A stretch of 64,000 nucleotides of DNA, taken from positions 8,496,501-8,560,500 of the forward strand of contig OY987244.1 of NCBI GenBank assembly GCA_963920765.1. The letters are read 5' to 3'. Shown one piece after another: positions 566-41,560 of the stretch (position 1 is its first letter; every line of letters begins with the position of its first letter). A model generated the notes under the pieces. That model did not search any database. It saw only the letters and a program-made list of their open reading frames with translations, and had not been told where the DNA came from. A program made the translations under genes and the position numbers. The stretch comes from Ulota crispa (Eukaryota > Streptophyta > Bryopsida > Orthotrichales > Orthotrichaceae).

Positions 566-569
566 ATTA

Positions 570-3386: not shown

Positions 3387-3499
3387 ATGAAGGGAAATAT
3401 TGAAAATAGGCCTGACAATAGGCTGTATTTCAAAAATAGTCTTGACAATTCAAAAATATAAAAAAATAGGCCTCATTCGGGACTTGAGTTTTTGTGCAT

Positions 3500-4337
3500 G
3501 GGTAGTTGCAAGAAACACCTATTTTGCTTTCTGTCCCCTTGCTGCACGGGGTGTGGTTTTAGGGGTGTATCTTTTGCTTACTAACTTCTTTTCATGTGGA
3601 ATTTTTGAGCAAGGTCCACACTGAAGTTATTGAACTACTGTGTTTTTTGGTTTTTTTAAAAATCAATCACTAATTTTAAATGTATTTCAATAATATGTCT
3701 ACCTTGGCCGTTTTGTGGGTTTTCAATATTGCATTGAGCCAAAAAAAGGAATTTGATGCCACAAATTTGGGCAGTTGTTCATCATTGAACAATACATGGA
3801 TTTGCCAAGGGGTTTTAGAAAAATGTAAATTATATGCCCTCCACGTCCCCTCAAAGTGGAAATCCATTGGATGGGCTTCTGTGCATGGAAACAAATATTT
3901 TTCAAAAACTTTTTGCATTAGTCAATGCTCCTCACAAGGTACCCAAATGGCTATTTTTTGTTATAATATTCTGATATTTCCTATATTTACTAAGATTTAA
4001 AAGGTGGCAACCTAGAAATTCTGGTAATTTCTGCTCCACATGCTTGCATAGTACTCCCCTCTATTAATTGGCACTACGTAGTACCACTAACCACTGACAT
4101 CATCTAAGGATGTGAATTTTTTTTCATCCATTCATTGAATTGCCATTATTGATAATTGGTCTTCCTAAATGACATGCCATGTGCCTTGTTCCCAATAGAT
4201 ATGGGATGGGAGGAACAATTCAGATTTCCACTGCGAGGATACTATACAGTACTTGCAGTACTAGTAGTACTACCCAGTGTTATACTCAAAATGAGGCATT
4301 TTGACACAAAACTATGAAGTGTTTCTTGCAACTACTC
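3500..4337 (+). mobile_element. GGGTAGTTGC-family MITE, copy B, nested in the foldback
   Basis: Terminal inverted repeats GGGTAGTTGCAAGAAACACC and GTGTTTCTTGCAACTACTC are flanked by GCAT (3496-3499 and 4338-4341), a 4-bp duplication. The matching position in the undamaged right arm of the host foldback (about 5400-5430) has no insert, which confirms it arrived after the foldback. The interior aligns with copy C. The 106-codon frame inside it is not conserved as protein and is not called as a gene. Confidence 0.8.
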
Positions 4338-5199
4338 GCATGATTTCCTTCAATTACCAAATGGGTTTATCAAGGAACTTTTTTGGTTATTATCTCTAAT
4401 ATATACTATAAATATTGAAAAATTAGATTTTCAACCGGCTTTTTAGCCAATATTTACAAATTGCAAATGTTTTTTTCTCATTTCTATTGGCTAGCTTTGA
4501 ACTAGTTGTCGGTTTTTCTTGGACCCCCTCATCATATATCAAAAGTAGGCCTTGCAACTAAGGTGACCAAAATTTTGTGCATGTTTATTCATGAGAATGG
4601 ATATGAGCACACCTAGGGTTTGATATATGCACACAAAGAGAGGGCTGAATTTTAGATATTTACCATCAACAAGCTGAATTTGGAAATTTGAAATTCAGAT
4701 TTGGATTTAGAGATCTTCATTTTGTTTAGAAGCATAATGGAGGTTACAACTAAACTACGTCCAATGGAATAGTTTAATTTTTTTTTACAAACAAGAGTAA
4801 AAGTAATAATTTATCCCGTAGCTTAGCTTTTCCATTGGACGTAGTTCAGTTGTAACCTCCATTGTGCTTCTAAACTGAATGAAGGTCTCTAAATCCAAAT
4901 CTGAATTTCAAATTTCCAAATTCAACTTGCTGATGGTAAATATCTAAAATTCAGCCCTCTCCTTGTGTGCATATATCAAACCCTAGGTGTGCTCATATCT
5001 ATTCCCATGAATAAACATGCACAAAATTTTGGTCACCTTAGTTGCAAGGCCTACTTTTGATATATGATGAGGGGGTCCAAGAAGAACCAACAACTAGTTC
5101 AAAGCTAGTCAATTGAAATAAGAAAAAACCATTTGCAATTTGTAAACATTGGCTAAAAAGCCAGTTGAAAATCTAATTTTTCAATACTTATAGTATGTA

Positions 5200-5342
5200 C
5201 ACTAAAAGAAATCTTGCAATAAATAATTGGTTCACAATGAATGCAAATGTACTAAACGACTTTAGTTGAGTCATTGTATAGTCGTTCAAGACATTTGCAG
5301 TCATTGTGAACTAGTCATTTAGGACATTTTTTTCTTCTAGTC
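5200..5342. mobile_element. CACTA-like MITE nested in the foldback right arm
   Basis: 143 bp starting CACTAAAAGAAA and ending with the complement of GACTAGAAGAAA, flanked by GTA and ATA. The left arm of the foldback lacks it, so it is a clean insertion. Terminal CACTA with a 3-bp duplication is the CACTA (En/Spm) pattern; the right end has drifted from CACTA to GACTA. The interior is itself rich in inverted TCATTGTGAACTAG-like segments. Confidence 0.55.
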
Positions 5343-5511
5343 ATAATAAAGATAATAACCAAAAAAGTTCCTTGATAAACCCGTTTGGTAATTAAAGGAA
5401 ACTAATCGCAAAAACTCAAGTCCCAGATGAGGCATGTTTTTTATATTTATGAATTGTCAATACTATTTTTGAAATATGGCCCATAGTCAGGCCTATTTTC
5501 AATATTTTCCC

Positions 5512-8500
5512 TTGAATGAATTGATTCATAACCTTGAGCAACAACCATGAAGCACTGAGTGATTAAACTAATTACGTGCATGAAAAACAGACGGTTCTTT
5601 TTTTCATTGTACTAGGATGTGCTTCATCCAATTCATATACGTACATCAGAAAAAAACCTTGGTTATATTCAATAGTGTTGCAGTATTGCATCAACACTAT
5701 TGTAGTGGCTTAACAATAAAATATTGATGCAATACTGCAACAATATTGCAATATTCTAGTATGGATGCAATACTAAGGTTTGACTTCTAGTAATTTATTA
5801 TTTTAAAAATATAACATTCGTTAAGTTTATTATTAACCACTACATGAGTCATTGAGTTGCTTACTCTATTTGGCCAAAAGAGAATGTACACGGAGAAACT
5901 ATATTTAGAATATTTCTTGAGTTGAATTTTAGTGAGGAGGAGGGGGGCCAATTTATTAGAAATGCAAACCAAACATTTGCTGCACTACCTCTATCTTCTG
6001 ATGGTACGCAATTGCAACAAGGTGATCTACTTATTTTTTGAATGCTTTTAAAAATCTTGGTTGTTGATTAAGAATAAAGGGTTTTAAAATGCATAAAGTA
6101 GGGAGAGGGTACATGCATAAAGTGGTTTATGTTGAGGCTTTACTTTGAATCAAGTTGATGGTATTTGTGAGTTAATTGGTCACTCATACTTTAGATTTTT
6201 AAATTGACCACAGTCTACTGCTAACGTAGAATTTGTTTTATGCAAGGATATTCTTGTTACCTCCATTGGTACAACATGTACCTTTACTAGTAAGCACATA
6301 ATAAAATTAGAGCATAACTACCAAAATTTACAAAAAACAAAAACTCTCTTCAATTTCCAAGGTAGTTCTTTGGTCAAAATCACACACAAACAAACAAGAC
6401 TCACCAACACTCTAGTCTTAGTTGGTAGTACATGCACAACATAAAAACTAGACAAATGCCTCATTCAATTTTCCAGCGCCAATTATCACCAAACTACACA
6501 ATGCAATAGTAGTGGCACTTCAAAACCAACATTTTTTCTTAATCCCAAACTTGCAACCAACACAACATGTTACCGTACTAAAAAAGGCTTAATAGTCCTC
6601 AAAGTTGCCATGGCAAGGTGTGTTGGAAACACAAAATTTTGAGTTAGGAACAAAAAAGCATCAAGTAGATTATGTTGACTTTAACATAGTTTTTTCAATT
6701 TTTCTTCTAGTATAATCTCTATAGATTAACCTATATGCCAACACACAATACTTACAACTAATGTCTTGTACAATTCAAAATATGCATAAGCTTTTACTCA
6801 TCTCTTTTGAACTTTGCATTCACATTTTCAACATGAAAATCTTGCAAACATCTTCATAAATCCAAAGCTTGAACCTTAGAGGTCATCATTGAATAAGGGC
6901 AAACAAATCTCAAACCCTGCCGCACTTTGTAATCATCTTAGTTCCTTGGCATTCACAATTTTATTTCAAAAGTTAGCAACGATCAAGCCAACCAATACAT
7001 TGTGGCATGAATAAAATTGATTAAATACAATTAAAACAAGAGATTAAAGATTTTTTTTATTCCATCTAGAACCCAAAATATCATGATATCACATGAACTA
7101 ACAATAAGACAATCATAAGTAAAAAAAACAAAGCATCTCCAAGTTCATATACATTCAAGAACAAAAAAACCAAAAACAAAACTATCTATATAGAGGTAGT
7201 AGTCATCATGTAAGTCATTGCCCAACTTTTCTTGTATTGTGTCTTTGTCCTCACCAACAACAACCTGTATCTTCTTCAGCAAGAATGAATTTCTTCAAAC
7301 ATTTTTTTTGTAAAGTCTCAATTCACTTTCTTTCATATTCCAATCACCATCCATAGCTAAATGCAATACATATTCAAACCACACTAACTACTTTGCAGTC
7401 AACAAAGAGATTCATTTTTTGAAAAACATTTTTCCAAACTTCACAATCACTATTGTGTTGCACAAAGCAATTGAGCCAAATGGATCATCTTCATTCCACC
7501 TCCAATTATTGCCTATAGTACTAAAAAAACATTATCAGTATAACAATGACTATTGATCAATTGACAAAATGAAGTAACCTTAATTTACTAGAGAAAATTT
7601 GACAAAACAAATTGAATTTAACAATGTAATATGCATCAATTGAACAAAAAGAGATTTAGTAATAATTATACACAATCATACTTTTAGCTAGTAGTTATAA
7701 ATTTGCCTTTCATTCTTTAATCTCCTTTGTTGTTGCTTGCTGTAGTTTTGAGACTTCCAAGTTACACCATTATTGATATTGGGTAGTTGTAGAGAATCTA
7801 CCACGTCTATTGGTGATGAGTGTCTTCAATTTCTTCCTCAAAGTCTCAATCCAAACCTTATCAAATACATTTTGAACACTACTGTTAGTGGTATTGAGAG
7901 CTTCCAAAATTGCCTCTTTAATGTGTTCTTCTTTGTGACTGCTTGGATTTCCACCCTAGAGAGATAGGAAAACGCAACCGGGTTCTAAAGTACTTCACAA
8001 AAATTTATAGCTAGCTATTTAGAGTGATGCATTTTAGATTCCAATTCTTTGCCTTCTAAACAATAGATATTCTAATTTTGATTTAAAAATCTAAAAAGAT
8101 ATGAGAGATCATACAATAAGTTACGAGTGAACCAAGAGTCTAAGCTAGAGGGATTTCACACAATAGATTAGGGAATTGTACTAACTAAAAAAGTCGATGT
8201 GGGCTATGGGAGACATCCTTTTATTTCATCCAAAAGAGGAGCATCTCCAATTTGGTCGTAAGCTACCTCCATTCTTGGTATTGTTGGCTGTGAATTGCTC
8301 CAAAATCCATACTGACGATCCAAAAACCTCTATTATTCTCTATTTTTCTCTAACTGGCTAATTTTACATACTAGTCTTAGCCCTTGACACCCTTTCTTAT
8401 GTTGACTCTGTACTCTAGATAAAAAGGTGAATAAAAAGTCAACTAAAAAAGAAAGATGAAGACCATGAATCTCCAAATCTCCCAAACTATGTTTGCAGGT

Positions 8501-19203: not shown

Positions 19204-19875
19204 GTTGCAACTCCTTGCACCGGTTCGCTTTTCGGCAAGCTCTTGCGAAACCATCTGTCGATTGATCGATCGAGGAATGATCACAAGTTGGTCATCATAT
19301 CAAATCGGACACCCACAACAAACGAATAACCAGTACTTTCAGGCAAGCTCAGGAAGAAATCCCCACAGCCGCCATGTCGACCGGCGCGAACATAGATGCT
19401 ACAATTCCAGACGTCATTTGAGCAAGTGCGTGCGAGAAGAAGTTGAAACTCCAAGCGTCTCTTCGCTCTCCGGCATGATCTTGCGGAAGCGCTGATCAAT
19501 CGAGAAGAGCTCGAGAGTTGGTCGTAATCTGAATTTGGATACTTACAACAGTCAACCAATCGTTCACGGCAAGATCACTTGTACGAAATTATTGCTAGAA
19601 ATCCAGTAGCCGAACGAGCTAGCACCGTCGACAGGGAATCGAAAATTCCAAGCGCAGCTGCTCCCTCCAGCTATTGCTGTACGTACCATCGATTGATAGC
19701 GGAGCTTGGCCACAATCTCGAATTGGACACCGTATCACAACAAACACACAAACAATCATTCAAGACTCGATCTAAATTTTTTAATCGCAGCCACAATCAT
19801 GTCGATGAGCGCGTCGAACGAAGACTCAACAATTATATCAGTAACATCGAAAATTCAAGCGGGAGACGTGCGCGA
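19204..19875 (+). repeat. Three degenerate tandem copies making the HINT gene 5' region
   Basis: Copies run at about 19204-19438, 19439-19636 and 19637-19875. Each has an AACTCCAAGCG-like box, a GATTGATCGATCGAG-like box, a GTTGGTCATAATCT-like box and a GGACACCCACAACAA-like box in the same order. The third copy contains the chosen start codon. The first holds a matching ATG (19374) that opens a 15-codon frame ending at 19421, whose first residues resemble the real N-terminus. The upstream units therefore look like duplicated promoter, leader and start regions. Confidence 0.65.
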
Positions 19876-20500
19876 TCCTACAGAGGCGGCCTTATTGGCC
19901 ACCGACACCACTGTTCTGATTCCGGCGGTGGTGCCCGACGCTGTACTGCCGTCATTTACCGTACCAGTCAATGCTGCGGAGCAACTGGATCATCGAGAGC
20001 GCATCTACGCCTCACAACTGAAGCAAGCCCGCTCAGACGACGAGCATGACCCGCACGAGCGAGCCGCATCCATCCACGCCGCCATGGCCGAGGGCGACGC
20101 CGTGGCGCTCTCGCAACGCATCGTGCGCGCGTCATTGATAAACGAGCCCGGGGTTCAGACGCCGTTCGACCAGATCATCAGGCGGAAGGTCCTGGCGTTC
20201 GTGGTGTACGAGGACGACGACGTGTTGGCGTTTCACGACAGTGTGCCGCAGGCGCCTGTGCATATCGTCATCATTCCCAAGTTCCGCGACGGCTTGACGG
20301 GGCTGTCGGCGGCGGAGAGTCGGCACAAGAAGATCCTGGGCCAATTGCTGTACACGGCGAGCCGTGTGGCAAAGATGGAGGAGACACTGCGCGATGGGTA
20401 CCGAGTCGTCATCAATGAAGGCGGGAGTGGGGGTCAGACGGTGCTGCATCTGCACTTGCATCTGCTCGGGGGCAGGTTCATGCAATGGCCGCCTGGTTGA
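19799..20500 (+). CDS. HINT1: Histidine-triad (HIT) nucleotide-binding protein, HINT1 type
   Basis: A 233-residue protein. The HIT domain occupies about residues 121-233 and shows the family landmarks: an FDQII start, LAFHDSVPQAPVHIVIIPK, VVINEGGSGGQ, the catalytic triad HLHLHLL (codons at 20447-20467) and the WPPG terminus typical of HINT1. HINT proteins hydrolyse adenosine 5'-phosphoramidates and aminoacyl-adenylates, with the central triad His as nucleophile; they act mainly in cytosol and nucleus. The roughly 120-residue N-terminal extension is low in complexity with no clear targeting signal. The frame is open from an ATG at 19706, but the ATG at 19799 has A at -3 and aligns with the duplicated upstream start, so it is preferred. 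The gene is intronless and far richer in GC than the neighbourhood, which could mean a retrocopy or transferred gene; that part is inference. Confidence 0.85.
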   Translation: MSMSASNEDSTIISVTSKIQAGDVRDPTEAALLATDTTVLIPAVVPDAVLPSFTVPVNAAEQLDHRERIYASQLKQARSDDEHDPHERAASIHAAMAEGDAVALSQRIVRASLINEPGVQTPFDQIIRRKVLAFVVYEDDDVLAFHDSVPQAPVHIVIIPKFRDGLTGLSAAESRHKKILGQLLYTASRVAKMEETLRDGYRVVINEGGSGGQTVLHLHLHLLGGRFMQWPPG

Positions 20501-26831: not shown

Positions 26832-27879
26832 TTTTATATATTGTGGAGTTTTAAATCCCAAATCCCAAAACATAACCTCATATTCATTAAAAATGGGAAT
26901 TTTCCATTAAAATGAGAAGTAATGTAAAGGAAATTCAACAAAAGGTGTTATGTCAATTCAACTTGATTTGAACTGAATTGACATAAGACCTTTCAGATTT
27001 GACCTAAAATTAGAAAGTTTTATTGCAATTTAGCTCAAACCCTTTCAAAACTAACCTAAAATTGAAAGGTTTTATGTCTCAATTGTTTATTTTGGGAGGT
27101 GCCTAATCTCCCACTTCAATGAATATGATGTTACATCCTAGAATTACAAAATACTCTATAAAAATCCCTTACTTTTGGGTAGATTGTCTATGAAAGAATT
27201 TCTCCTTCACCACAAACTTCACCTCACTGTCATAAAGTTTTACATAAAGTATTCATGCTAATTTATACTAGATGTTATGACCATGATTTTGGTAAGGAAT
27301 TTTTTTAGATTGTTTTTGTAATTCCAGATTTGTATTTACAGTATTGAAACAAACAAATATTATAGTCAGAGGTATTGACGAGGATAGACCAGTTACTGTA
27401 GCTTTGAGGCATAAATGGTAGATCAAAATGCACATTATCGAAGGTTAGAATTTAAGGAAGGTTTGATGTACCTCCAAATGTACTGTACAGTACTAGTTAA
27501 TATTGATACGTAGAACTTGTTTTGGCATTCTAAAGAAGTTTGTATAAGAAAAAATGTAAAGGTCATTTTAAACTCATACTTTTGATATATGATTCTCATG
27601 CAATTCCAATAGACCATACCAAATTTTGATCACTAAAAATCAAAATCCTATTTTTGGTACGTTGTTTTGTCTCAAAATCACGGTTTTACAAGAAAGTTGA
27701 TCAAAACACTTTGGTGTGAATTTTTTACAATTTGATTGCATGGATAGGTAGGAGATATTCAAACACACATCTTTCTTTTTAACAAACATCTTCAAAAAGT
27801 TCAAAATTCCTTCAATAGAGGTTCAAATGTTGGAGTGATTATGACCAAATTTAGTAAACTAGAGGATCAATTGGTTTAC
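26832..27879. other. Flank of the retrotransposon; short palindromes
   Basis: Contains a small palindrome around TATGTCAATTCAACTTG and its complement (26950-26990) and two diverged copies of ACCTAAAATTGAAAGGTTTT. A 5' long terminal repeat for the following retrotransposon was looked for and not recognised. Confidence 0.4.
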
Positions 27880-28985
27880 CAGTGCCAGATGTCACTACTG
27901 TCTCACGCGTACGTCATAGTGGTCTAGCTGATTCCATTGGTTAGGCACGCCTACCATTATCTTTTGGTTTGGCTGATATTGTTGCCACGGGCAAACACTC
28001 AGTTGATGCACTCCCACATCTTAGAGATTCTGCCTCATCTGATTTACTACAAACCATGGTTTCCAATATTATGCAGATTTCAATATTTTCTGGCTCCGAG
28101 TTAATGGCACTTAGTTTCTAGACCTTTGAGATCTTTCATATGGTGAGACGTGTTTTAGAAAGGAAGGCGGATATGCTATCTCTTCAGGTTTCTTAAGCTG
28201 TTGTCAAGATCTCTTCAATTCATGATTCAGAGGCTCAAGCAAAGCTACGTGCTAAGCTTATAGCTAAAGCCATTACAGAATTTGATGAGCATGTAGATAG
28301 CCACACACTGCATCATTCCTCTATAGATGCGCCTGTAGCGATGGCAGTAGCTTATTTTTCTGACGCTTCAGCAAGATCCACTAAAGAGCGACAAGCCGTA
28401 TATCTTGGTGTTGTTTGTTTGGTAAACAACAATGGATATCTATGATTTCACGTGGTGGAGAGCAGAGTTATTGAGCTACTTCGCTTAGAATGATGATGGA
28501 CTCAGGTATCCAACCAGTTATAATAAGCAAAAATTTGGCGGCAAAATTTGTCTTGACGACTAAAGACTTGGTGCCTTATCTATTCAATATTGTCACTTTA
28601 GTTGGGAGCATGGAGTTTGCCACAAGCTATACCAAAGAGCCTCTACAATTGATATTTTGAGTATGGGGAACCTACGTATTCTCATTTTTCTTTGAGGTGC
28701 GCTGTCACCAATGCTACTAACTATGATATTTTAGTTGATCAGCAGGCGCTTTACCCTCCTGATTTTAGTATGGATATTTAGAATAAAGAGGCGTGAATTT
28801 GACCGGGTTGGTTTTCTGATGACGGTCTGAAATAGTTGATTCCAGTGGCATTTGCAGCATTGACTATGTCTATGACTGCTAATGCTATGTTTAGATGTGT
28901 GGCGTTTTTTGAGAGTCTCCCATTTAGTCTTTCACTTTTGGAAGAGACCTTGGCGTTTGTTGCTGCATTTCTAGAAGACTGATGA
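27880..28985 (+). pseudogene. gag-like and aspartic protease region of the retrotransposon
   Basis: A coding-like frame with several stops runs from about 27880. It is Ala/Leu/Ser-rich and has no zinc knuckle, so calling it gag rests on position. From 28490 the frame reads MMMDSGIQPVIISKNLA, a retropepsin-type active site (D-S-G at 28499-28507), followed after a frameshift near 28665 by a stretch with RCAVTNATNYDILV that fits the second half of such a protease. Stops at 28779, 28794 and 28800 lie a few codons apart. It would cut the polyprotein in an intact element. Confidence 0.65.
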
Positions 28986-29042
28986 GAGTTATCAATTTTG
29001 GTGACTATACTTCAATATTCCAAGGATGTTTTGTCACTTTGA

Positions 29043-29616
29043 ATTAGCAGTCAGGAGTTGTTCCGATGGTGTATGGACATTGTAGCTTCTGTTCTTTTTT
29101 ACTCTTTGGCTTTTACTTCCATCAGCTCTGTATTTGAGCGACTTATTTATTGGCGTCTATCCTCAGACGATATCACTTTTGTGGAGCTTTTTGGAAGCAT
29201 TGGCACCGGTTTGGCAGCCATTTTAGAGGCTGGACTCATGATTAGGCAGTATATTCATATTGACGACAGTTATGTGCGTACCAGAGCAGCCCGGCATCAT
29301 TTTCAAAGGTTGATGGCTCAGTTTCTTGAGCAGTTGCCTCTATCATCCATTCATGGATGTTTTTGCCACCTTCTTAGAGACGTTACCCTTATCAGTGATG
29401 AAGATTTGAAGAAGTTAGGCCAAGTTGATTTACTTGTGACAAGATGGCCTCGCCAAGATTACTCACGAGCAAGTGCAGGTCAAGAGTTAGATGACCCAAG
29501 ATCTAGTCTATTTATGAAGTTGGTGAGGAAAATATAGTGGTGGTATAATCATCAAACTACTCCACTTGGATATATTTTTGAGAATGTACCTCCATTGAAC
29601 GATGAACGATGTCCTG
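29043..29616 (+). pseudogene. C5-cytosine DNA methyltransferase domain, N-terminal half (catalytic Cys lost)
   Basis: The open frame 29058-29537 (159 codons), and its continuation past one stop, carry methyltransferase landmarks. They are VELFGSIGTGLAA (motif I, S-adenosylmethionine binding, 29181-29219), VDLLVTRWPRQDYSRASAG (motif IV region, 29422-29478) and FENVPPL (motif VI, ENV at 29580-29588). In active enzymes motif IV is PCQ and its Cys attacks cytosine C6; here the codons at 29458-29466 read Pro-Arg-Gln, so this copy cannot be catalytic. Homology breaks off near 29616 and resumes at 31766. The domain lies between protease and reverse transcriptase in the polyprotein frame, so it is part of the element and not a host gene beside it. 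Confidence 0.8.
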
Positions 29617-31765
29617 ATGGAGATATCTCCATCATATAGGTACTCGTTATTTATTTATGTTTGTGTTTATTTCAATAAATTAACAGTTCTGGCAAAAAGG
29701 GTGGTCGTGGTGAAGACCACGGTTTAATGACAGCGCAACGGCTATAGATTCCAGTGCGCTGCGCCGTCTTGTCACATGCATAGCTCAGGGGAGAGGGTAG
29801 GTAGCAGGTTGGCTGGGCCAATTTCCTGCCTCACTAGCTGCCAAGCCGTGCGCCGCCATCACCGCTCGACGAGTCCGATGGAATTCGAACCCGGATCAGC
29901 GAGCGGCTAGAGACGACCGCTTCTCTAGTCAACCAAGTTCACGACTTGGCGACTAAAGACAAGCGTTTGACGCTATTATATGCTTACAAGGGCACGTGGC
30001 CACTATACGATGGTATTTTTTTTGTAATTTAATCATTTTCATATATTTATCTAGATGTTTTGGAAGGCTCATATATTTTGCCTTTGTTTGAATAAAAATA
30101 CTAAGGGTTTAGAAGTTAATGGAAAAAGTGTAAAAGGAAAAAAGATTTGGCATTTATGGTGGGGTTAGGATAGAGAGGGGTATGGCTGATGTGCCTCACC
30201 TCCCTACTTTAGATAGGGTCGAAATTATGGAGGAAAGATTCCTTAGTTGTTAGAAGTTAGTGTATGAGTATTGGTGGAGAAGAAGGAAAAAATCTCAAAA
30301 CTTTGATGTGAGAGAATTTTTTGTGTATGCATGGTTTTGAATTGAACTTTGAGGAGGTTGTTCCTTGTGTGATTATCTTTTCAAAATGAATTTGCAATTT
30401 TGATTTGGAGTTGTGATGCAAAAGTTATGAGTGTTTGAATTTTGGAGTCAAAAAGCCAAACTATGAAGAAAGGCTGAGACTTTGACAAGCCATAACTTAT
30501 GATTTATAAATCATTTTGCAACAAGATTTGGAAAGAGTGTTTATTTTAATCTTGGATTTTTAGAAAATCTTTAAACTTGAGGTTTGAAGCTTGGATGAGA
30601 AAGTTATGGAGGTGTGAAGGATAGAGGTGGCTGCTCTTTTGTTATGAGAAGGCCGAAACTTTGAAAAGCCACAACTTTTGGACAGTATGAAATTTTTTTT
30701 TCAAAATTTTAGGAGCAATAGTTTGTTATCATAGCTTTTTGAGTTGTTTTTAATCATTTTATTTAGAGTCTTATTGAAAAAATTATAGTGTGTAGAAGTT
30801 GGGGTTTTGGGTGCTCTCTAAAAAATTGAGACCCATACTTTGATTGAGTAGAACTTACAAATAGAGTTTTATTTTGAATTGAAAATTTTACAAATTGTAG
30901 CCAGTGGTATCATCTTTTTCAATTGATATCACGTTTCTATAGGTGATGTGTAGAACAAAAGTTATAGAGGTTTATAGAGGCAGTGTTTAGTTTGCAAGAA
31001 GGAAAAAGAGCCTCAATTTTGAACTCGCATAACTTTTGAATAGTAGTTTAGAATGAATTGAAATTTGAATGGATGTTAGAAGGTTAGAAGAACTTTCCAA
31101 ATTATTATTACACTTAGCATTTAGATCCTTGAGCCATCTGTGATTATAGATAGAAGGTTGCAGCTTTTCTAAGACTTGTTTTTTGTGATTTTCCACATTG
31201 TTTTTATTAAAACATGAAGACCTGAAGACATGAAGACTTGAAGATCTGAAGATATGAAGATTTCAAGAGGAACATTTTGGGTTTATTTTTTATGTATGTG
31301 TAAGATGTGGCTTTGTTATTCCTAGCCGGTTTTGGAGGCTCGTTTATCAATTCATTTCCATTATGTTTTATAAATCTTGTTGCGGGTAATTTGGATTAAA
31401 CCAAACTTAACCCTATTTATTGTCATGATGACAAAGTGGGATTGATCATCCACATGGTCGAGACTTGCTCTGTTTTCACAATCTGAAATTTTAGCCAGCA
31501 GATCATGAATTTGAATTTAGGATCCCGTCATACGGACGGCAGCTCGTGTCTGCTGTCCCAATCTACCCGTTCCATATCCAGTGGGCTCTTATCCCTACCT
31601 TGTCCATTATATTCTTAGAGCTAGCCACAGGATATGCCAACAGAAAACTGAAGACTGAAGATCTAAAAAATGAAGATCAAGACCGAAGAAAATTTTAGTC
31701 AGTAACGCACGAATCGCAGCAAGACACCCTGCGTGTTCCCAAGGCGCGCTCCTGTCAACCTGATA
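29617..31765. mobile_element. About 2.1 kb of foreign DNA splitting the methyltransferase
   Basis: The methyltransferase alignment stops after ENVPPLNDER and resumes with HYICQFLGPPNFVDAA, which in the family follows within a few dozen residues. The intervening DNA has no coding signature of the element. It starts with a GC-rich block (29700-29990) that holds a tRNA-like sequence on the minus strand, continues A/T-rich, and ends with GAAGACATGAAGACTTGAAG-type short repeats (31210-31265, 31640-31690). Borders are approximate and no clear terminal repeats or TSD were found. Confidence 0.6.
29855..29960 (-). repeat. tRNA-like SINE head
   Basis: Read on the minus strand it has an A-box-like TGGTTGACTAG, a stem AGCGG/CCGCT where the anticodon arm should be, and a near-perfect B box GGGTTCGAATTCC. 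The anticodon loop is too long and the T stem is poor, so it is a tRNA-derived repeat and not a tRNA gene. Confidence 0.45.
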
Positions 31766-32405
31766 GCGGCCAAAGGTGATAGAGGTTGGCCATTATATTT
31801 GCCAATTTCTTGGCCCTCCAAATTTTGTGGATGCCGCTACACTATGGTCGTTTACCCATTGACTACTTTGGATTTGGACCAATATAATGTTACATTCCAT
31901 ATTGGCCAAAGCATTTTTACAAGTCATTATACCACCAAGACGTGTGGTGAAAGACATTTTAGATGACTACATGGACCCTTTGATTGTGACCAGAAATGAT
32001 TCACTTCCCTTTGCTTTTATCAACAAGATTGAAAAGCCTTGCAAAGCATTATCGACATTTGTTACATTTCCAAAGTCCTTTGCATTCCGAGCACGCGGAC
32101 TTGGCATGGTGTGGAATTCTCATAATTACACTTATAAGAAATCCAATGCGGATGAGCGAGAGCACGCCATGGGTTTTTCTACTAGCACTATAGCAGCTCA
32201 TGATTTCACTAAAGATCAACGACGTTTTGTATTGGGTCAAGCTATGAATCTGTATACTATGGTTTGGACCCTTGGCATTTGCCTTGCTGTTCAGCAGCAA
32301 CATGGCCAATTGTTTATTCTAGGGGTAGAGGACAATAGTCACGGGACAACAAGAATGTCAATCGCTACAGTTGAAGAGGATTCGAAGCATTATTTTCATT
32401 TTTAA
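31766..32405 (+). pseudogene. C5-cytosine DNA methyltransferase domain, C-terminal half
   Basis: The frame reads FLGPPNFVDAATLWSFTH, a stop at 31860 (TGA where relatives of this enzyme class carry Arg), LWIWTN, and then an open stretch to 32405. That stretch includes the C-terminal methyltransferase signature ADEREHAMGF (about 32148-32177) and QRRFVLGQAMNL, matching motifs IX-X, where the chain folds back to complete the cofactor pocket. The part after residue HGQLF links to the reverse transcriptase frame. Together with the 29043-29616 half it makes one complete but inactive domain. Confidence 0.75.
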
Positions 32406-33500
32406 TGGCAGGCTTTAGATGAGTTTCAAGCTCAAAAAACCTTTGCTACTTTGGCCTTAAATAGCGATGTTGGGGGCAGTGATACTATCCATTTCTTTTC
32501 TGATTAGCAACCACAGGTTGTGTCCACATTTGGTGGTGGTTTTTTGATGGAGAAGACTACCATGGAGTTTGATGGTTGGCTTTTGAGTTTAGATCATCAT
32601 CTCACAAATTTTGAGGCACATGAGGTGCGAGCATTTAACCACTTGTACCGGAGTTGCTTTGTGTTTAATTTTCAAGATTTAGAGGATTATAAAGGCAAAT
32701 TCATTCACATTCAGCTTGAGGATGATCATCCAACCTTCAAACGTCCTTATAAGCTGAGTAATTCTGAGAGGACTGATATTCAAGCACAATATCAGGAGCT
32801 TTTAGCTGCAAGTTTGATTGACTTATCCAATGGCAAGTACACTTGTATTATGGTGATGCCTTCTAAAAAGGATATCTTTGATAATTGGACTGAAAACATG
32901 ATGTGTAGACATTATCGTCCGGTCAATAAAAAGACCAAATCATACTGATATCCTATGCCAACGCTAGAGGAATTATTTGATGCAGTGAGATTGGCTCAAA
33001 TCTTCAGTACATTGGATTTGAGATCTGGATACCACCAGTTGTCATTACGATTAAAAAATCGGGTGAAGACTGCATTTTGGGAAGTGGATCATGATAGCAG
33101 AGATCTACTCTATCATTGGAAGTTTCTTCCATTTGGTTTTAAAAACGCACCCGCTGAGTTTCAGAGGATAATAGATCATATTTTGACTGGATTGCCATTT
33201 GCTTAGTGCTACATTGATGACGTTATTGTCTTTAGTAATTCACCTCAGGAGCATGTGAAGCATTTGCAAGCCGTTTTAAATGGTTGCATGAATGAGGATT
33301 GTGCTTGCATCATGGCAAGTGCAAATTCTTCCATGACTGTTATTAAATTTGGGACAAATGATAGTTCCAAGAGGATTTGGTATATAGCATGCAAAGGTGA
33401 ATGCTCTTCAGAAGCTTCCAGCACTTTGTAATGTTCCAGGGCTGCGTGCATTTTTTGGCTTAGCAAATTATTATTGCCGCTTTGTTAAAAATTTCAGATT
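32406..33500 (+). pseudogene. Reverse transcriptase domain
   Basis: Clear Ty3/Gypsy reverse transcriptase. Motifs in order are LEDDHPTFKRPYKLS, VMPSKKDIFDNWTE, YRPVNKKTKS, FSTLDLRSGYHQL, FLPFGFKNAPAEFQR and the catalytic YIDDVIVFS at 33210. It copies the element RNA into DNA in an intact copy. Stops at 32946 (TGA) and 33204 (TAG, directly before the YIDD box) and a frameshift near 33290 break it. The thumb and connection region after 33290 is heavily scrambled. Confidence 0.85.
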
Positions 33501-33504
33501 GATT

Positions 33505-34020
33505 GCCAAGCTTTTGACTTTGCTCACAGGAAAATACCAGATTTGGACATGGAGCCGTGAGCAGCAGTTGGCTTTTGACACGTTGAAGTAGAAGTTAGGC
33601 TTAGCACCTGTACTTTAACGTCTTGATGTTACTAGACCTTTCCAACTGCACACGGATTAGAGTACCGTGGGATTAGGTGCAGTTTTCACTTAGAAAGATT
33701 ATGCAGGACGGGAATATGTTATTGTTTTTGCTTCAAAGAGTAAGAACTCGGCAGAGTTCAACTATTTGTTTTATGAGTGAGAAGCTTGAGCTACGGTATG
33801 GGCCATTTCTCATTTTTGGCCTTACCTGTATGGGCAACGGTTCACATTGGTGACAGATCATCAACCTTTAAAGTGGCTTATAGAGTCAGATAAATTCACC
33901 GGCAAGCTTGCTAGCTAGGTTCTGCTGCTTCAAGAGTACGACTTTGAAATTGTTCATTGAGCTGGTATCACTAATTTAAATGTAGATGGACTTTATTGCA
34001 ATCCAAGTCCCTCTGATGAG
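33505..34020 (+). pseudogene. RNase H domain
   Basis: Follows the reverse transcriptase. FALANYYCRFVKNF-like text (33440-33490) leads into the domain. LHTD (33646) gives the first catalytic Asp, FASKSKNSAEFNY and LVTDHQPLKWL are family motifs, and YDFEIVH marks the end. Stops at 33589, 33658, 33691, 33776, 33916 and 33958 interrupt it. RNase H removes RNA from the RNA-DNA hybrid in reverse transcription. Confidence 0.8.
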
Positions 34021-34234
34021 GATTTGACTAGTGCTAGATGGCATAAGGATGGCAATAGAGAGGTAGTTCCAAGCTGGCATGCAATTGCTTATTTGACTTT
34101 GATGTCAAACTTTGCTATTAAGGTGGCTGATCTAGGTTTGGATGATGAGCTTGAAAAATCTCAGGGCATTGAAGATGTGTAGGAAGACTCGGTGGTCTTG
34201 TACAAACTCTAGCATGGATCATTTCCTATAGGTA

Positions 34235-35270
34235 TTCCTACCATGGAGCGAGACAAAGTTTACCATCAAATAACAAGGTTCCGTTGAGATAACGGCTTGT
34301 TGATTTGAATTTGGCCGGATGGAGCTAGGCGCATAGTTCCTCGGTTGGACCAAAATGCTTCTTTGATACGCTAAGTGCATGAGGAGCTTAGTCATTTTAG
34401 AGTGCGCATGACGCATTTTATGTTACGCAACCAGTATTCGTGGACTGGCATGTATCAGCAAGTTTCCACATATGTTTCACAGCATAAGGTGTGTGATCAA
34501 GTGAAATCAAGTTTCAACACTTTATTGCCACACTTAATGCCGTTATCTATCATGGGTTTAGGTTATCGTTGGTCTTTGGACTTTGTCGGTCCGCTTGTTG
34601 TCACTCCACGTGGAGCCAAGTACGTGTTGGTAATGATGGAACATTTCAGCAAATGAATTGAGTTGGTTGCTTTGCCTCAGAACTCTTTGGAGTTGGCAGC
34701 TATGGTATTTCTTGACCAAGTACTGGCACGCTTTGGACCACCGGCTGAAGTCTTTTCAGATTAAGGCCAAGAGTTTCTAGAGGCTTTTGAGACTCTATGC
34801 ACCAAGGCTTTGATTGATTATTGCACCACCTCTAGAGATCACCCTGAGGCGAATGGTTTGGCTCAGCGAATTGTTCAGACAGTCAAATGTGATTTACGCA
34901 AGTATGGATTGCTTTGTGGAAACCATTGAGATTAGGGTTTGATATTACCATGGATTGCCATGGATTGTCATAGATTGCCGTTTTAGTAAGTAGGTTTCTT
35001 TGGTTTCTTATAGCCCTTACCAGTTGCTATATAGATGGAAGCCTATTTTGCCTAACTTCGTGAAGGAGAAACTGGCTTCAATTGTGGACTTGGATAGTCC
35101 AGATGTTTGGGCTCAATGTCTACATGATCGAATTGAGTTCTTCAAGAAGGCCATGCCTATGACTTTGGAAAATTTACACATAGCTCAGCATTGAAATTCT
35201 TTGCGTTATGCGTGCATTTGTAGCGACGCTTATCGACCTCACCTACGAAGGTTCTTTCAAGGAGATTATA
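34235..35270 (+). pseudogene. Integrase
   Basis: An N-terminal zinc-binding stretch (VHEELSHF to HKVCDQ, 34375-34500) has lost at least one Cys. The catalytic core has YRWSLDFVGPL (Asp at 34579), FSD (Asp at 34759) and, exactly 35 codons on, Gln (CAG at 34864) in place of the third acidic residue of the DD35E triad. SYSPYQLLY and a basic C-terminal part follow to about 35270. Stops lie at 34285, 34306, 34372, 34654, 34762, 34927, 34933 and 35192. Confidence 0.85.
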
Positions 35271-35334
35271 TATTTGCAACGTGAAGCACCTATCACATTG
35301 GATGTCAGAGCATGACGTACCATTCTTTGAGTGA

Positions 35335-35640
35335 AGAACGTCTTGCCTAGTGGCATTCTTTTGTTGGAAGGCAAAGATGGGCAAGAGTGCAAGGAGCATT
35401 CCAAAAATTGTGCTCCTTGTCACTTGCCTATCGATAATACCGTGCAGCCGGAGTTGGCAATGGTGCCAGAAGGATTACCTTGTTTTATTTGTAGAGAGAA
35501 GAAAGACGCGGCTACTATGCTTTTGTGTGACTAGTGCCAACGTGGTTGGCATATGGCATGCTTAGTTCCGCCATTGTCGACTCTGCCTCCAGGAGATTGG
35601 ATTGTCCTCGTTGTAGGAGATCTTCAGGTCATGCTACATC
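35335..35640 (+). pseudogene. C-terminal PHD finger of the polyprotein
   Basis: After a linker with LLEGKDGQECKEHSKNCAPC the frame reads CFICREKKDAATMLLCD, a TAG at 35532, CQRGWHMACLVPPL and PPGDW. A one-base frame change then gives CPRC (35603-35614). The Cys4-His-Cys3 spacing and the WHMAC core are those of a PHD zinc finger, a module that reads histone H3 tails. In the retroelement it may steer integration or bind chromatin, as chromodomains do in other Gypsy elements; that role is inferred. Confidence 0.8.
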
Positions 35641-35989
35641 TCTGGACAAGCGCTGATAATCTCTTGAGGTCAAGCCTCTTAAGTTTGAGATGACAGCATT
35701 GCCACCTTTGTTGACTAAGCACCAGATTTGTAGTATACAAGGTTGGACTAATGGAAGATTGAATAAGAAATTGGCACTAAAAACCTGCCAAAGACGATTA
35801 ACGATGGGGCTTGTTATTGCACCCGGCCTACAATCTTTTATACTTTCTTTCATCATGTTCACTTGACATTGTCGGCCGCCGACAACATCACCTTCAGTGT
35901 AGATAGATGTTGAGGACTTTCATTCATCTTTGCATTTGGATCTAACTATACTTTTAGAATAGTCTTAGCTGACTCGCGAGTCTCTAGTA

Positions 35990-37378
35990 GCCAGCTAGAG
36001 GGGGCAATTGAGAGCATATTTGTATATATGTTTTTGGGTTACATTTTTGTTTTTATCTGCTGTTAGTGATAGTACACGATGTGTTGTGTTTAGCAATATC
36101 TATGTACATGACAGCCTTCTTGCTGGTGGCTGGCCCTTCAACACCAAAGGCCCAGCTTAGGTTTTCATTTTATCCTGGCTTTTCTCAGTATTATGGAGGT
36201 TCAAACATGAAATCTGGCCTACGAGTTTCTCACCTCACATGATCCCCACTCACTGGTGAATTATTTTTGTTCTCCCCTATGCCAAAAGTTTGACACACAT
36301 GTGAATTTGCAATTAGGATTTTGTGAGCAAGGCGGGGGTTTGAGCGTTTGAGATAAATGTGAGGATGGAACTTGCAAAAGTGAGTTTATGAAGTTCACTC
36401 CTCATGTGAATCAAGTTTGGAGTGAATTCTAGAGGTCAGTCACCTAGCTGTTCACTAGTAAATTCACAGAGGTGAATTGTGATGTGAGTCACCTCAAAAA
36501 GTTTAAGTTTGAAGCCCCCTATTGTTGATCCTTTGTTACCAAAGTTCTACCTTGAATAGGCAGTACATATGAACTTTTCTATAAAATCGAGATTTTTAAT
36601 GGTTAGTCTTGACTGTATCGATCAAGGGCCTCAATGATCCTGATATAAATTTGTCACTATGTTTTCTAGTGCAATGTTTCTAGTCCAGCTAGATCTAGTT
36701 TAGTTTCATGTTTTTCTTGATCTTTTCTTGACTTTTGGTGCCAAATGTTGAAAATATGCAAAGAAGATTATGAACGGGTGTGATTATTCCAGGCCACCTA
36801 GGTTAATTAATTTATATATTTGCAATATTTTGTTTCAATCAACATTTTTATGTCAATGTAGTATATATCAAGTTTCATTAATCTTGTTTATATTGTCTGA
36901 TTTTAGTTTTGTTTTAGAAGCTAAGCAACAACAAAAAAGCTAAGATACCTTTCTACAATCAAGTAAAATCAATTCATAGCAAAAGGGAAAATCAATTTGG
37001 AAATGGTGACGGCAATCTATATGTTGCCATCGTAAATGACTTTGTTTGAGCATTTCTGCAGGTGGTCCAATACCATCACTTTTTGCAAGGTGATCATGGT
37101 GGCCATGGTCTTAGTAAAGAAGAACTTCAAATGAGACTTGCTCATTGAATTGTTGTGCACACAAATGACCCATCTAAATTTGCAAGGGCTATGAATGAAG
37201 TTCCAAGTTTGGATGAATTTTATACTTAGAAACCTCATTTTGAAGGACAAGAGATTTTTGGCTCCTTTAAACAGAAGGTAGGGGTGCCTTTTGGTTCAAA
37301 ATGTGAGTCACATCAACTTGGCAAGGTGAATTTTCTCGTCCTAGAATTGAACTCACAAGTGCTTTTTGTTTCAATTGA
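35990..37378. other. Possible polypurine tract and 3' LTR zone
   Basis: AGAGGGGGCAATTG at about 35998 is a fair polypurine tract directly before a sequence that could start the 3' LTR. No downstream or upstream copy of this zone was recognised, so the LTR length is unknown. The DNA between 36300 and 36520 repeats GTGAATT and AGTCACCTC-type segments. No gene is seen. Confidence 0.35.
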
Positions 37379-39268: not shown

Positions 39269-41012
39269 GGGCTGCTTTACATATGGGGGCCGGGCCAATT
39301 TGGCTAGGGGCTGATTGCCTCAAATTTCAGCCCACATTTTGCTTAAGGCCAGCCTTCACTACTAATTAAAATAAGATTAGAGTGGGGGCCAATTGTCTCA
39401 TATGTAAAAGGCCTTGAGGCCAAGGAGTTGGGCCAATTCAATAAAGTTAAGCCATCTTTACACTAGAGGTGAGAAGTTGTGACAAAAATCTCTTATGGGC
39501 CAAGGCTTGTATTCAAAAAGCTAGCATTTGGAGATAGTGGCTCTTGTTGCAATGTAAAGTGAGAATAGGCCACAATTTTTTTTAATTAATTAATTTTTTT
39601 ATTTTTTATTTTTAAATTTGAATCAATGACATGACAATAGACACCAAAAAATAGCTAGTTGGACAGAGGGGGACGTTGCCAAAATGTGCATGAACCTTAA
39701 ACATGAAATTTGAAACAAACTCTTAAGTTCTTTGTTTACCTTATCAAGGTATGTTATACCAATGGCCTTCATAATTTTCTCTTTATCAACCACAAAGCAT
39801 TTATAATATTTTTGCATATTGATTTGTTCTTCCATAAATCAAATTTTATGCAGATAGTATCTAGCAGAATATATACTATAAGTTATGGATCATCAAGAGT
39901 ATCTTGCATAAAGGATGATAGAAAATGAAATCAAAATATCAACATATGCAAGGTTGAAAACTTCATGAGAAGCATAGAAGGAAAAAAATGATTTGCAAAT
40001 AGATACTTCCTCTATCCTATTATAAAACTCCAAAAAACTTCTCCATGAGGGATTAATTGTATTTTTAGTCATTATGCTAGTGGCAAATGCATTCTAGAAT
40101 CAATATACCACCTACCAAATGTTTGAAAAATCTCCAATTTTTATGTTGCCGTTTAGACACCCAAATTGCTTGCAAAAAGTACCATATTTGTACATGTTGC
40201 TAGCTCCTCATTATTGATAATTTAAAGATTAGTAGCAACTATGGTACCTCATAAGCGCAAGGCCAAGCTTGTTAGGAGAGGAATGCCCTACAATTGCTTA
40301 ACTTACCTCCATGAGATCATTGGACATGACAAACACTTTCTTAGCAATTGAAATTAGCAAAAGGGAGGTTTTTTGTGGAATAAGAACTATTCCTAATTTG
40401 GAGCTTTATATTGGGATGGAGGGTATACAAGCCTATGCAAGTAATCAGTAAATCCATTTAGCAAACTAAATGCCCCATGCTCCCCATGCCATCCCCCATC
40501 TCCCATCCCCCATCTCCCATCCCCCCATGCCATCCCCCATCTCCCATCCCCCATCTCCCATCCCCCCATGCCATGTCCCCCATGCCATCCCCCCATCTAG
40601 CCATCCCCCCATGCCATCCCCCCATGCCATCTCCCCATGCCATCCCCCCATGCCATCTCCCCATGCCATCCCCCCATTCCCCCATCCCCTGGCTTCTGTT
40701 GTACCCCGGCTTTTGTTATAACCCATTTTATTGGAGAAAAAATAATATTTTATGAAAAAAAAAAAATTAATGAAACTTGGCATTGGGCCCCAAAGCCAAG
40801 AATTGGCCTCCCATTTTTGGTGCACCCAATTCAAAGAGCTCGAGCCATGTCAAATCTTGTTTTTGTTGAATAAAAAATTCATCCCACCAAATTGGCCTTG
40901 CCATTAGGTGTAAGGGGGTTGGAGCTAATTTCAGCTTTTTGTCCAATCAGAAGCTAGGATCAGTGGCCTTTGACGCAGGCAGTTGGCGTGGCCCCCATAT
41001 GTAAAGCGGCCC
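39269..41012. mobile_element. Harbinger-like element, 1.74 kb, non-autonomous
   Basis: Ends GGGCTGCTTTACATATGGGG and the complement of GGGCCGCTTTACATATGGGG pair over 20 or more bases. Both are flanked by TTA (39266-39268 and 41013-41015), the PIF/Harbinger target. No transposase frame remains. The interior includes the minisatellite at 40470-40690. Confidence 0.75.
40470..40690. repeat. C-rich minisatellite
   Basis: Variants of CCCCCATGCCATCCCCCATC repeat with 6-12 bp modules over about 220 bp. The strand asymmetry is complete (G-rich on the minus strand). Long open frames on both strands here (Met-Gly-Asp or Pro-Ser-His repeats) are repeat translations. The G-runs could form G-quadruplexes. 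Confidence 0.85.
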
Positions 41013-41153: not shown

Positions 41154-41560
41154 GGGAAATTACAAATAGGGGCATGTAAATGAAAACTATTATAGATAGA
41201 GGCGCAGTTTCAAAATAATTACAAATAGGGGCGCAATATCACTATAATTTGTAAATTTCTGTAATTTTTTTGCTTTGGACATTGGTTGATTTTTAGACAT
41301 TTCACATGAAATGTTGGCTAAATTCCAAAAAACTTAAAGGCCTTTCCAAAAATTGTCATCCCCTTTACTAAAATTTCTTTATTTAGGCTTGATTTGGAGA
41401 GGCCTATAAGTTTTTTGGAAGTTAACTAGCATTTCATTTGATATGTCTAAATCAACCAATGTCTTAACCAAAAAAAATTGCAAATAATTAAAAATTATTT
41501 TGAAATTGTGCCCCTATTTGTAATATTTTTCATTTTCATGCCCCTATTTGTAATTTCCCC
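41154..41560. mobile_element. MULE-type MITE with perfect 9-bp duplication
   Basis: Ends GGGAAATTACAAATAGGGGC and its complement. TTAAATATA is present exactly at 41145-41153 and 41561-41569. Subterminal copies of ATTACAAATAGGGGC repeat inside each arm. 407 bp, non-coding. Confidence 0.85.

What the first reader, a model, noticed from the sequence alone, without database searches (positions are those of the whole stretch)
27880..35870. A retrotransposon that carries a DNA cytosine methyltransferase
Seen: methyltransferase motif I, ENV and the C-terminal signature lie in order between a DSG protease and a YIDD reverse transcriptase on one strand. Known: C5 methyltransferases write 5-methylcytosine, normally a silencing mark against transposons. 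An element that brings its own writer may use methylation to hide, to maintain itself or to control copy number. Such elements have, as I recall, been described in charophytes and dinoflagellates; this copy adds the full domain order in one frame set.
Basis: partly seen in the sequence, partly recalled or inferred. Interest (0 to 1): 0.9.

Follow-up and report, generated by a model that had tools for sequence, protein, structure and literature searches.

The report
Moss retrotransposon carrying a DNA methyltransferase
This is a decayed copy of a jumping gene in a moss that carries its own DNA-methylating enzyme, and relatives of that enzyme turn up in liverworts and green algae, so it is not a curiosity of one alga.

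Summary
Window 27856-36113 is a dead Ty3/Gypsy-type element in the order gag remnant, protease, DNMT3-like methyltransferase (MT), RT, RNase H, integrase, PHD finger. The MT belongs to the family: 84 of 92 MT places in this genome have the RT within 3 kb downstream; 89 of 95 RT places have an MT within 8 kb upstream. The host is a moss (LEAFY piece 104/106 identical to PDB 4bhk). This copy is broken: several frames, many stops, a ~2.2 kb insert in the MT, catalytic Cys replaced by Arg.

(1) An in-frame stop (30 of 31 loci) followed by CAR-YYA (30 of 31) separates Gag-PR-MT from RT-RH-INT-PHD, so the MT is predicted to be made at Gag level.
(2) Repeats are DIRS-like (A-coding-B-A-B), yet the ends are TG...CA with a 4-bp target duplication, as a DDE integrase makes.
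(3) An intact relative (L094) and homologous proteins of Klebsormidium, Closterium, Marchantia and Calypogeia show a wide family.

Closest known: KnitGypsy-Dnmt3. New variant of a known kind; what the MT does is inference.

The parts
27856..36113 (+). remains of the whole element (5' end missing, 3' end at the end of repeat B)
   Evidence: homology to copy L041/L042 from 27856 to 36119; B repeat ends 36113
27903..28430 (+). C-terminal part of gag
   Evidence: tblastn with the gag of L094, 37%
28475..28657 (+). aspartic protease (DSG) open piece
   Evidence: below Pfam cut-off; same place in other copies
29043..29609 (+). DNMT3-like methyltransferase, motifs I to VI (FENV); catalytic Cys replaced by Arg at 29451-29453
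   Evidence: Pfam PF00145 23.5 bits; 92 merged places in the genome; motif counts
29610..31766 (.). foreign insert inside the methyltransferase; class and strand not determined; no clear target duplication
   Evidence: absent from copy L041/L042; related stretches elsewhere
31767..32501 (+). methyltransferase C-terminal half (motifs VIII-X) and tail
32505..32513 (+). conserved leaky-stop signal TAG-CAA-CCA between methyltransferase and RT
   Evidence: 30 of 31 loci have a stop here, 30 of 31 CAR-YYA after it; window letters
32508..33428 (+). reverse transcriptase (YIDD), two stops inside
   Evidence: RVT_1 41.6 bits; pieces
33349..33915 (+). RNase H
   Evidence: RT_RNaseH 39.9 bits
34375..35191 (+). 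integrase (H2C2 zinc domain, DDE core), broken by stops and a frame change
   Evidence: Integrase_H2C2 34.6 bits; 94 merged places
35331..35690 (+). PHD finger at the integrase C-terminus, one stop inside
   Evidence: 95 merged places, 89 of 94 INT places have it within 600 bp; PF00628 38 bits in copy L042
35997..36006 (+). polypurine tract AGAGGGGGCA
   Evidence: a purine run stands before B1 in the copies listed
36007..36113 (+). terminal repeat B (single; no A2/B2 found in this copy)
   Evidence: 93% to reference B

Best explanation
A dead copy of a Ty3/Gypsy-type retrotransposon of the KnitGypsy-Dnmt3 kind, in a moss. Shown: the family carries, as a fixed part, a DNMT3-fold cytosine methyltransferase between protease and RT, and a PHD finger behind the integrase; a conserved stop in UAG-CARYYA context stands between MT and RT; the repeats of many copies are arranged A-coding-PPT-B-A-B; the outer ends are TG...CA with a 4-bp target duplication. 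Inferred: ribosomes mostly stop at the UAG, giving Gag-PR-MT, and sometimes read through, giving also RT-RH-INT-PHD. The MT is thus a Gag-level component of the particle, freed by the protease, and methylates CG sites of the new double-stranded cDNA. The cDNA, an LTR of form [B A] at each end by the PPT and PBS-like positions, is joined end to end, opened by the integrase at the CA-NN-TG junction inside the repeat, and inserted, with the PHD finger holding an H3 tail at the target. The host's own methylation then keeps the copy silent and it decays, mainly by transitions.
Against: No activity is shown: KnitGypsy-Dnmt3 gave no methylation in yeast, judged inconclusive by its authors. The MT is under weaker constraint than the RT: pN/pS against L094 0.39 (32 loci) and 0.21 (30 loci); between moss copies median dN/dS 0.58 and 0.47. 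Only 17 of 32 scored loci keep both the Cys and the Glu. No excess CpG loss. The stop is not universal: Klebsormidium and Closterium proteins run from MT to RT in one frame. Copies with a single B (10 of 27 examined) can also arise by recombination between B1 and B2. Three of the 16 copies with both ends show no TSD (1 of 4 bases each; in one, B2 is truncated). Six of 27 examined copies showed no B with these probes. The dinucleotide at the B1/A2 joint varies: GC in 4 of 11, AT 3, AC 2, GT 1, TT 1. The overlapping ends of contig L094 can be an assembly effect of repeats.
Confidence: 0.72

Rival explanations
1. The methyltransferase is a chance neighbour or a single host-gene insertion in this copy.
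For: A foreign insert does lie inside the MT here, so copies are disturbed by insertions.
Against: MT in 92 merged places, 84 with RT within 3 kb at one spacing; one long ORF with PR in L094 and with RT in Klebsormidium and Closterium proteins.
Confidence: 0.01
2. The MT serves another step: it methylates host chromatin at the target, RNA, or rival elements, or slows the element down (copy-number control), rather than its own cDNA.
For: De Mendoza et al. list RNA binding, chromatin at the insertion site and lowered transposition as possibilities (section 11). No excess CpG loss in copies.
Against: Fixed position next to protease and on the Gag side of the stop points to a particle component (inference).
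Confidence: 0.3
3. The stop between MT and RT is not read through; RT is made from a second start, splicing or a separate RNA.
For: ORF2-only proteins of 1033-1083 aa exist in the database (P0069, P0070, P0072, P0073); most are mechanical gene calls, P0073 comes from a transcript assembly. Klebsormidium and Closterium proteins have no stop there.
Against: Same frame on both sides in L094 and a TMV-type CARYYA context in 30 of 31 loci.
Confidence: 0.12
4. The A-coding-B-A-B form is made on linear cDNA by a DIRS-like copying scheme, not by joining LTR ends and opening a circle.
For: Same repeat order as DIRS elements (PMC5890265).
Against: 4-bp TSD and TG...CA ends; PPT before B1 and PBS-like sequence after A1; PBS/PPT scrap at the A2-B2 joint of copy a; rve and H2C2 and no tyrosine recombinase family among the Pfam matches of L094.
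Confidence: 0.35

Closest known systems
KnitGypsy-Dnmt3 of Klebsormidium nitens (de Mendoza et al. 2018, PMC5890265; first part of the text, sections 9, 10, 11 and passages read)
   Same: Gypsy-type pol, DNMT3-like non-rearranged MT, DIRS-like repeat order; the K. nitens protein P0059 has PR-MT-RT-RH-INT and aligns to L094 at 46% (MT), 43% (RT), 58% (RH), 56% (INT)
   Different: moss host; MT and RT separated by a conserved leaky stop (one frame in P0059); PHD finger (the word PHD does not occur in that paper's main text; P0059 is labelled partial); the 4-bp TSD and the opening at B|A are not described in its main text ('target site' and 'circular' 0 times)
SymbioDIRS-Dnmt3 (dinoflagellates, same paper)
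   Same: DNMT3-like MT in a retrotransposon with A-coding-B-A-B repeats
   Different: tyrosine recombinase there; DDE integrase with TSD here
Phygy and Selgy Gypsy clades of Physcomitrella and Selaginella (Neumann et al. 2019, PMC6317226; passages read)
   Same: non-chromovirus Gypsy elements of non-seed plants
   Different: the words methyltransferase, PHD and Klebsormidium do not occur in that paper's main text; sequences were not at hand for comparison
TMV-type (type I) stop readthrough of plant RNA viruses (PMC3542737, passages read)
   Same: UAG-CAR-YYA motif
   Different: used here between a Gag-PR-MT and an RT-INT part of a retrotransposon

Membership tests
KnitGypsy-Dnmt3 | Gypsy-type RT, RNase H and DDE integrase | tested here: met
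   Pfam in window and in L094: RVT_1 108.7, rve 51.7, H2C2 64.5 bits
KnitGypsy-Dnmt3 | non-rearranged DNMT3-like MT in the polyprotein | tested here: met
   order I-IV-VI-VIII-X in window and L094; DNMT3 best in PDB by sequence and fold; two host DRM loci are rearranged, read by eye
KnitGypsy-Dnmt3 | sequence kinship with the K. nitens element | tested here: met
   P0059 KFL_009030040; in the quick MT tree it lies outside the group that holds the bryophyte rows
KnitGypsy-Dnmt3 | DIRS-like repeats A-coding-B-A-B | tested here: met
   B1-A2-B2 at the 3' end in 11 of 27 copies examined; 10 have a single B (one with part of A after it); 6 show no B with these probes, for one of which (L39) the 3' end was not fetched; the window copy has one B only
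KnitGypsy-Dnmt3 | purifying selection on the MT | tested here: inconclusive
   pN/pS 0.39 on average and 0.31 for L039 against L094, but pS is 0.5-0.76 and copies are decayed
KnitGypsy-Dnmt3 | catalytic residues kept | tested here: inconclusive
   PCQ and ENV kept in L094 and L039; 17 of 32 loci keep both Cys and Glu; window lost the Cys
Ty3/Gypsy (Metaviridae) elements | integrase-made short target duplication, TG...CA ends | tested here: met
   4-bp TSD, 46 of 64, 0 of 20000 shuffles; not scorable for the window copy
Ty3/Gypsy (Metaviridae) elements | two full LTRs at the ends | tested here: not met
   the 5' pieces of the 16 copies with both ends hold A and no B match
DIRS elements | tyrosine recombinase, no target duplication | tested here: not met
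   rve/H2C2 integrase in L094; TSD
DNMT3 methyltransferases | de novo CG methylation activity | not testable with these tools
   needs an enzyme assay

The most novel reading that the evidence does not exclude
Across the green lineage there is an old clade of Gypsy-type elements that carry a DNMT3 writer. In the moss-type branch it is made as a Gag-level particle component behind a leaky UAG, and the DDE integrase inserts an end-joined (circular) cDNA by opening it inside the LTR at a CA-NN-TG site. It would be a retroelement that combines DIRS-like topology with retroviral chemistry and marks its own DNA before it enters the chromosome.
Probability: 0.35. Interest if true: 0.88.

Novelty: new variant of a known kind. 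Interest (0 to 1): 0.72.

Why it matters
The published case was read as an independent acquisition by Gypsy elements in the K. nitens lineage (PMC5890265), and a 2019 opinion stated that methylase-bearing transposons are absent from land plants such as tracheophytes (PMC6338049, passages). Here such elements sit in a moss in about 90 places (a lower bound), and proteins with a related MT, three of the four with a protease in front, are on record in two liverworts as hypothetical or unnamed; that these too lie in elements is inferred. So the association looks old and widespread. The leaky stop gives a directly testable prediction about MT dosage. The TSD on a split-repeat element asks how a DDE integrase uses a joined cDNA.

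Tried and rejected
Chance or one-off insertion: rejected by the census. DRM, MET1 or CMT origin of the MT: DRM is much weaker than DNMT3 by sequence, and no chain named DNMT1, MET1 or CMT appears among the 50 sequences up to E 0.01; a tree with true plant DNMT3s was not built, because no such sequences were at hand. Excess CpG loss as a trace of self-methylation: not seen. Viral contigs: no relatives confirmed. First AlphaFold model (12 sequences) was poor (pLDDT 45.5) and not used; the second, on L094 with 41 sequences, was good. Target duplication of the insert inside the window's MT: none clear. Which tRNA fits the PBS-like TTGGCAAAGAATC: considered from memory only, not found. A longer host-DRM stretch was fetched and not used. 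tRNAs in the window: none.

Rows dropped before counts: one search merged pieces of one place (104 to 92 MT, 111 to 95 RT, 100 to 95 PHD, 98 to 94 INT; all are lower bounds by the tool's own note). One search left out duplicate loci, non-element loci and loci whose RT piece did not start within the first four residues. Searches used only proteins with long enough domain matches (93 and 68 rows, including L094 and, two bacterial rows and L039). The protein searches scored only the candidates sharing most words (7992), and one search listed 120 of 361. The end point TG/CA used for the TSD count was set after looking at four copies.
Full report
1. The observation. Three-frame translation of the window shows, on the + strand, DSG protease, MT motif I, a motif IV that reads WPRQ instead of WPCQ, FENV, the MT C-terminal part, RT with YIDD, RNase H, integrase and a PHD finger. 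Pfam supports PF00145, RVT_1, RT_RNaseH and Integrase_H2C2 above cut-off; the protease piece and this copy's split PHD are below. The copy is dead: the frame changes five times between gag and PHD, stops are many, the MT Cys is Arg (29451-29453), and the RxR motif reads stop and Leu. About 2.2 kb (29610-31766) inside the MT is foreign: in the collinear copies the pieces on either side are about 175 nt apart, here 2.3 kb. Only the C-terminal part of gag was found (27903-28430).

2. The family in this genome. The window lies in a 274.8 Mb assembly. Searches with MT, pre-RT, PHD and integrase-tail pieces gave 104, 111, 100 and 98 matches, merged to 92, 95, 95 and 94 places. 84 of 92 MT places have the RT within 3 kb downstream (median 1301 bp), 89 of 95 RT places have the MT within 8 kb upstream, 89 of 94 integrase places have the PHD within 600 bp. 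68 of 92 MT places have the full canonical spacing. A distant subfamily (C2:7962350, C2:3241350, C3:26965211, C5:2214601, C5:22168623, C9:18719468) is only 34-38% identical in the MT piece and 41-46% in the RT piece, yet also has MT, RT, INT and PHD in register. The MT is therefore part of the element and older than the split of its subfamilies.

3. The host. A LEAFY search hit two exons on contig C4; the 107-aa piece matches PDB 4bhk 'Floricaula/Leafy homolog 1' in 104 of 106 residues, and scores 245 bits there against 174 or less for the other four LEAFY sequences. That 4bhk is the Physcomitrella protein, and that Asp in MRDYVHCYALH is the moss type, are recalled; a paper search for the latter gave nothing usable. 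Two host methyltransferase loci are DRMs with rearranged motif order (read by eye). The exact species is not known.

5. An intact relative. The scan of bacterial genome contigs confirmed one locus, L094 (CADCWO010000201.1), 9285 bp, in a bin labelled Synechococcales; it is almost surely eukaryotic contamination. It has two open stretches in the same frame, 3-3491 (gag, PR, MT; by eye one CCHC knuckle of normal spacing and one that departs from it) and 3492-6635 (RT, RH, INT, PHD; rve 51.7 and PHD 39.9 bits), separated by a single TAG. Its protease match is below cut-off (20.5 against 24.3). Its ends overlap by 127 identical bases; read across that overlap the first frame has 1346 codons from its first Met, with a start much like that of independent proteins P0022-P0027. 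The overlap may be an assembly effect of repeats and is not taken as a real circle.

6. The leaky stop. At the MT/RT boundary 30 of 31 loci (29 of this genome, window, L094) have a stop: 27 TAG, 3 TAA; one has AAG. All 31 are followed by CAA and 30 of 31 fit CAR-YYA, the type I readthrough motif of tobamoviruses (PMC3542737, passages). Copies of one genome are not independent; the stronger point is that L094, about 54% identical in the MT, has the same signal. Other stops are decay: over 598 codon positions with 20 or more copies the mean stop fraction is 0.020 and the highest 14 of 30, mostly at Trp, Arg and Gln codons. Proteins P0001, P0002, P0004, P0006, P0007, P0011 and P0012 (7 of the 13 closest) end in GGM[ND]AL[SA]AT[KQ] at this place, P0022-P0027 in GGM[NDR]ALSAT[KQE], and 26 of 186 collected proteins have PR and MT but no RT. 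So the MT sits on the Gag side. That it is made in Gag-like amounts is inference.

7. The ends. In 27 copies examined (26 plus window; DNA; results in 55), 16 have both outer ends. The 5' end is repeat A (reference 370 bp) beginning as a rule TGTCACG; the 3' end is repeat B (107 bp) ending as a rule ACGACA or ACAACA. Eleven copies end B1-A2-B2, ten end in a single B (including the window; one has part of A after it), six show no B with these probes (for copy L39 the 3' end was not fetched). The inner B1/A2 joint is CA-NN-TG; NN is GC in 4 of 11, AT in 3, AC in 2, GT and TT in one each, and GC in L094. A purine tract precedes B1, and TTGGCAAAGAATC or a decayed form follows A1, so by these landmarks the LTR is [B A]. 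The bases outside the ends match as a 4-bp duplication in 46 of 64 positions (four copies exact, nine with 3 of 4, three with 1 of 4), against a shuffled mean of 17.6 and 0 of 20000 shuffles; 3, 5 and 6 bp do not stand out like this (899, 4037 and 12443 of 20000). In nine of ten main-family copies with B1-A2-B2, A2 meets B2 directly; in copy a (C3:17339294) 37 nt of PBS- and PPT-like sequence lie between, as in faulty 2-LTR circle joints of retroviruses (recalled). Model: linear cDNA [B A]-coding-[B A], joined end to end and opened at B|A, gives A-coding-B-A-B (two-LTR circle) or A-coding-B (one-LTR circle). The second form can also come from recombination between B1 and B2.

8. Age and decay. 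A1 and A2 of one copy differ by K2P 0.07-0.17 in nine copies, transitions to transversions 249 to 51. CpG observed/expected is 0.42 in 27 element interiors, 0.53 in the window copy and 0.40 in 17 window tiles. Against L094, mean pN/pS is 0.21 for RT (30 loci), 0.39 for MT (32) and 0.54 for gag (29); for L039 alone 0.18, 0.31 and 0.35. The MT was constrained, but less than the RT; decay after insertion inflates all these ratios.

9. Relatives. The MT search with L094 gave 47 proteins (from the 7992 best candidates), among them Klebsormidium nitens KFL_009030040 (P0059), Closterium NIES-53 (P0050), Marchantia polymorpha (P0043, P0046, P0048) and Calypogeia fissa (P0039). P0059 and P0050 run MT-RT-RH-INT in one frame; the Marchantia proteins show PR and MT, the Calypogeia one MT only, so that these lie in elements is inferred. 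The INT-PHD search gave 361 proteins (120 listed), with Haematococcus (P0071, INT and PHD, no MT match) and Volvox (P0109, partial: a weak MT-like match of 26% before INT and PHD). A second domain order, RT-RH-MT-INT-PHD, is seen in 24 of the 186 collected proteins. In the MT tree the second order and its likely fragments form one group of 44 rows (SH-aLRT 99) that includes Volvox; a group of 35 rows (support 86), most from metagenomes, holds Marchantia, Calypogeia, L094 and moss copy L039. In the RH+INT tree 24 of 25 rows of the second order lie together, with two rows of other labels (95). Both are quick trees without bootstrap; the root of the second is for drawing only.

10. Comparison with print. 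De Mendoza et al. 2018 (PMC5890265; first part of the text, sections 9, 10, 11 and passages read) describe KnitGypsy-Dnmt3 in a Gypsy Pol ORF with DIRS-like repeats, read it as an independent acquisition in the K. nitens lineage, and found its yeast test inconclusive. Morozov et al. 2019 (PMC6338049, passages) state that such transposons are absent from land plants such as tracheophytes. I found no report from mosses or liverworts in searches (listings; passages of a few papers); the library holds open-licence PMC papers only. The survey of plant LTR elements (PMC6317226, passages) does not mention methyltransferases or PHD in its main text. PHD fingers behind Gypsy-type integrases are known from one Ginger1 DNA transposon family (PMC2836005, passages). 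The PHD of copy L042 resembles those of PHF12, KDM5A and UHRF1 in the PDB; that many of these read an H3 tail unmethylated at K4 is recalled.

11. Verdict. The function of the writer remains open.

Noticed in passing
G000 C3:32753934(-) and 32773749(+); C4:9403135(-) and 9413141(+): Two pairs of element copies with identical scores in opposite orientation 10-20 kb apart: large inverted duplications or an assembly effect.
   Followed up: no
window 29610-31766; relatives in L040, L047, L050: A ~2.2 kb repeat of unknown class inserted in the MT; related stretches lie inside or near other element copies.
   Followed up: partly
P0057, P0063, P0134 and others, 24 of 186 collected proteins: A second domain order in related elements, mostly metagenomic: the MT sits between RNase H and integrase; quick trees keep this order together, and a partial Volvox protein (P0109) falls in the group.
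   Followed up: partly
L044 (copy C3:17339294), between A2 and B2: 37 nt of PBS- and PPT-like sequence at the joint of two LTRs, like a faulty 2-LTR circle joint.
   Followed up: partly
L094 and P0003: Eukaryote-like retrotransposon sequence sits in public bins labelled cyanobacterium and Obscuribacterales (probably contamination).
   Followed up: no
window 19700-20497 +: Open frame with a HIT / DcpS C-terminal domain, probably a host gene.
   Followed up: no
window 40468-40699 and 41154-41559: A 13-15 bp minisatellite and a 67-bp inverted repeat pair.
   Followed up: no
moss copies, RxR codons of the MT and Trp/Gln codons: Stops arise mostly by C-to-T or G-to-A change (CGA to TGA 12 of 30; TGG to TAG/TGA/TAA up to 14 of 30), as after heavy cytosine methylation in several contexts.
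   Followed up: partly
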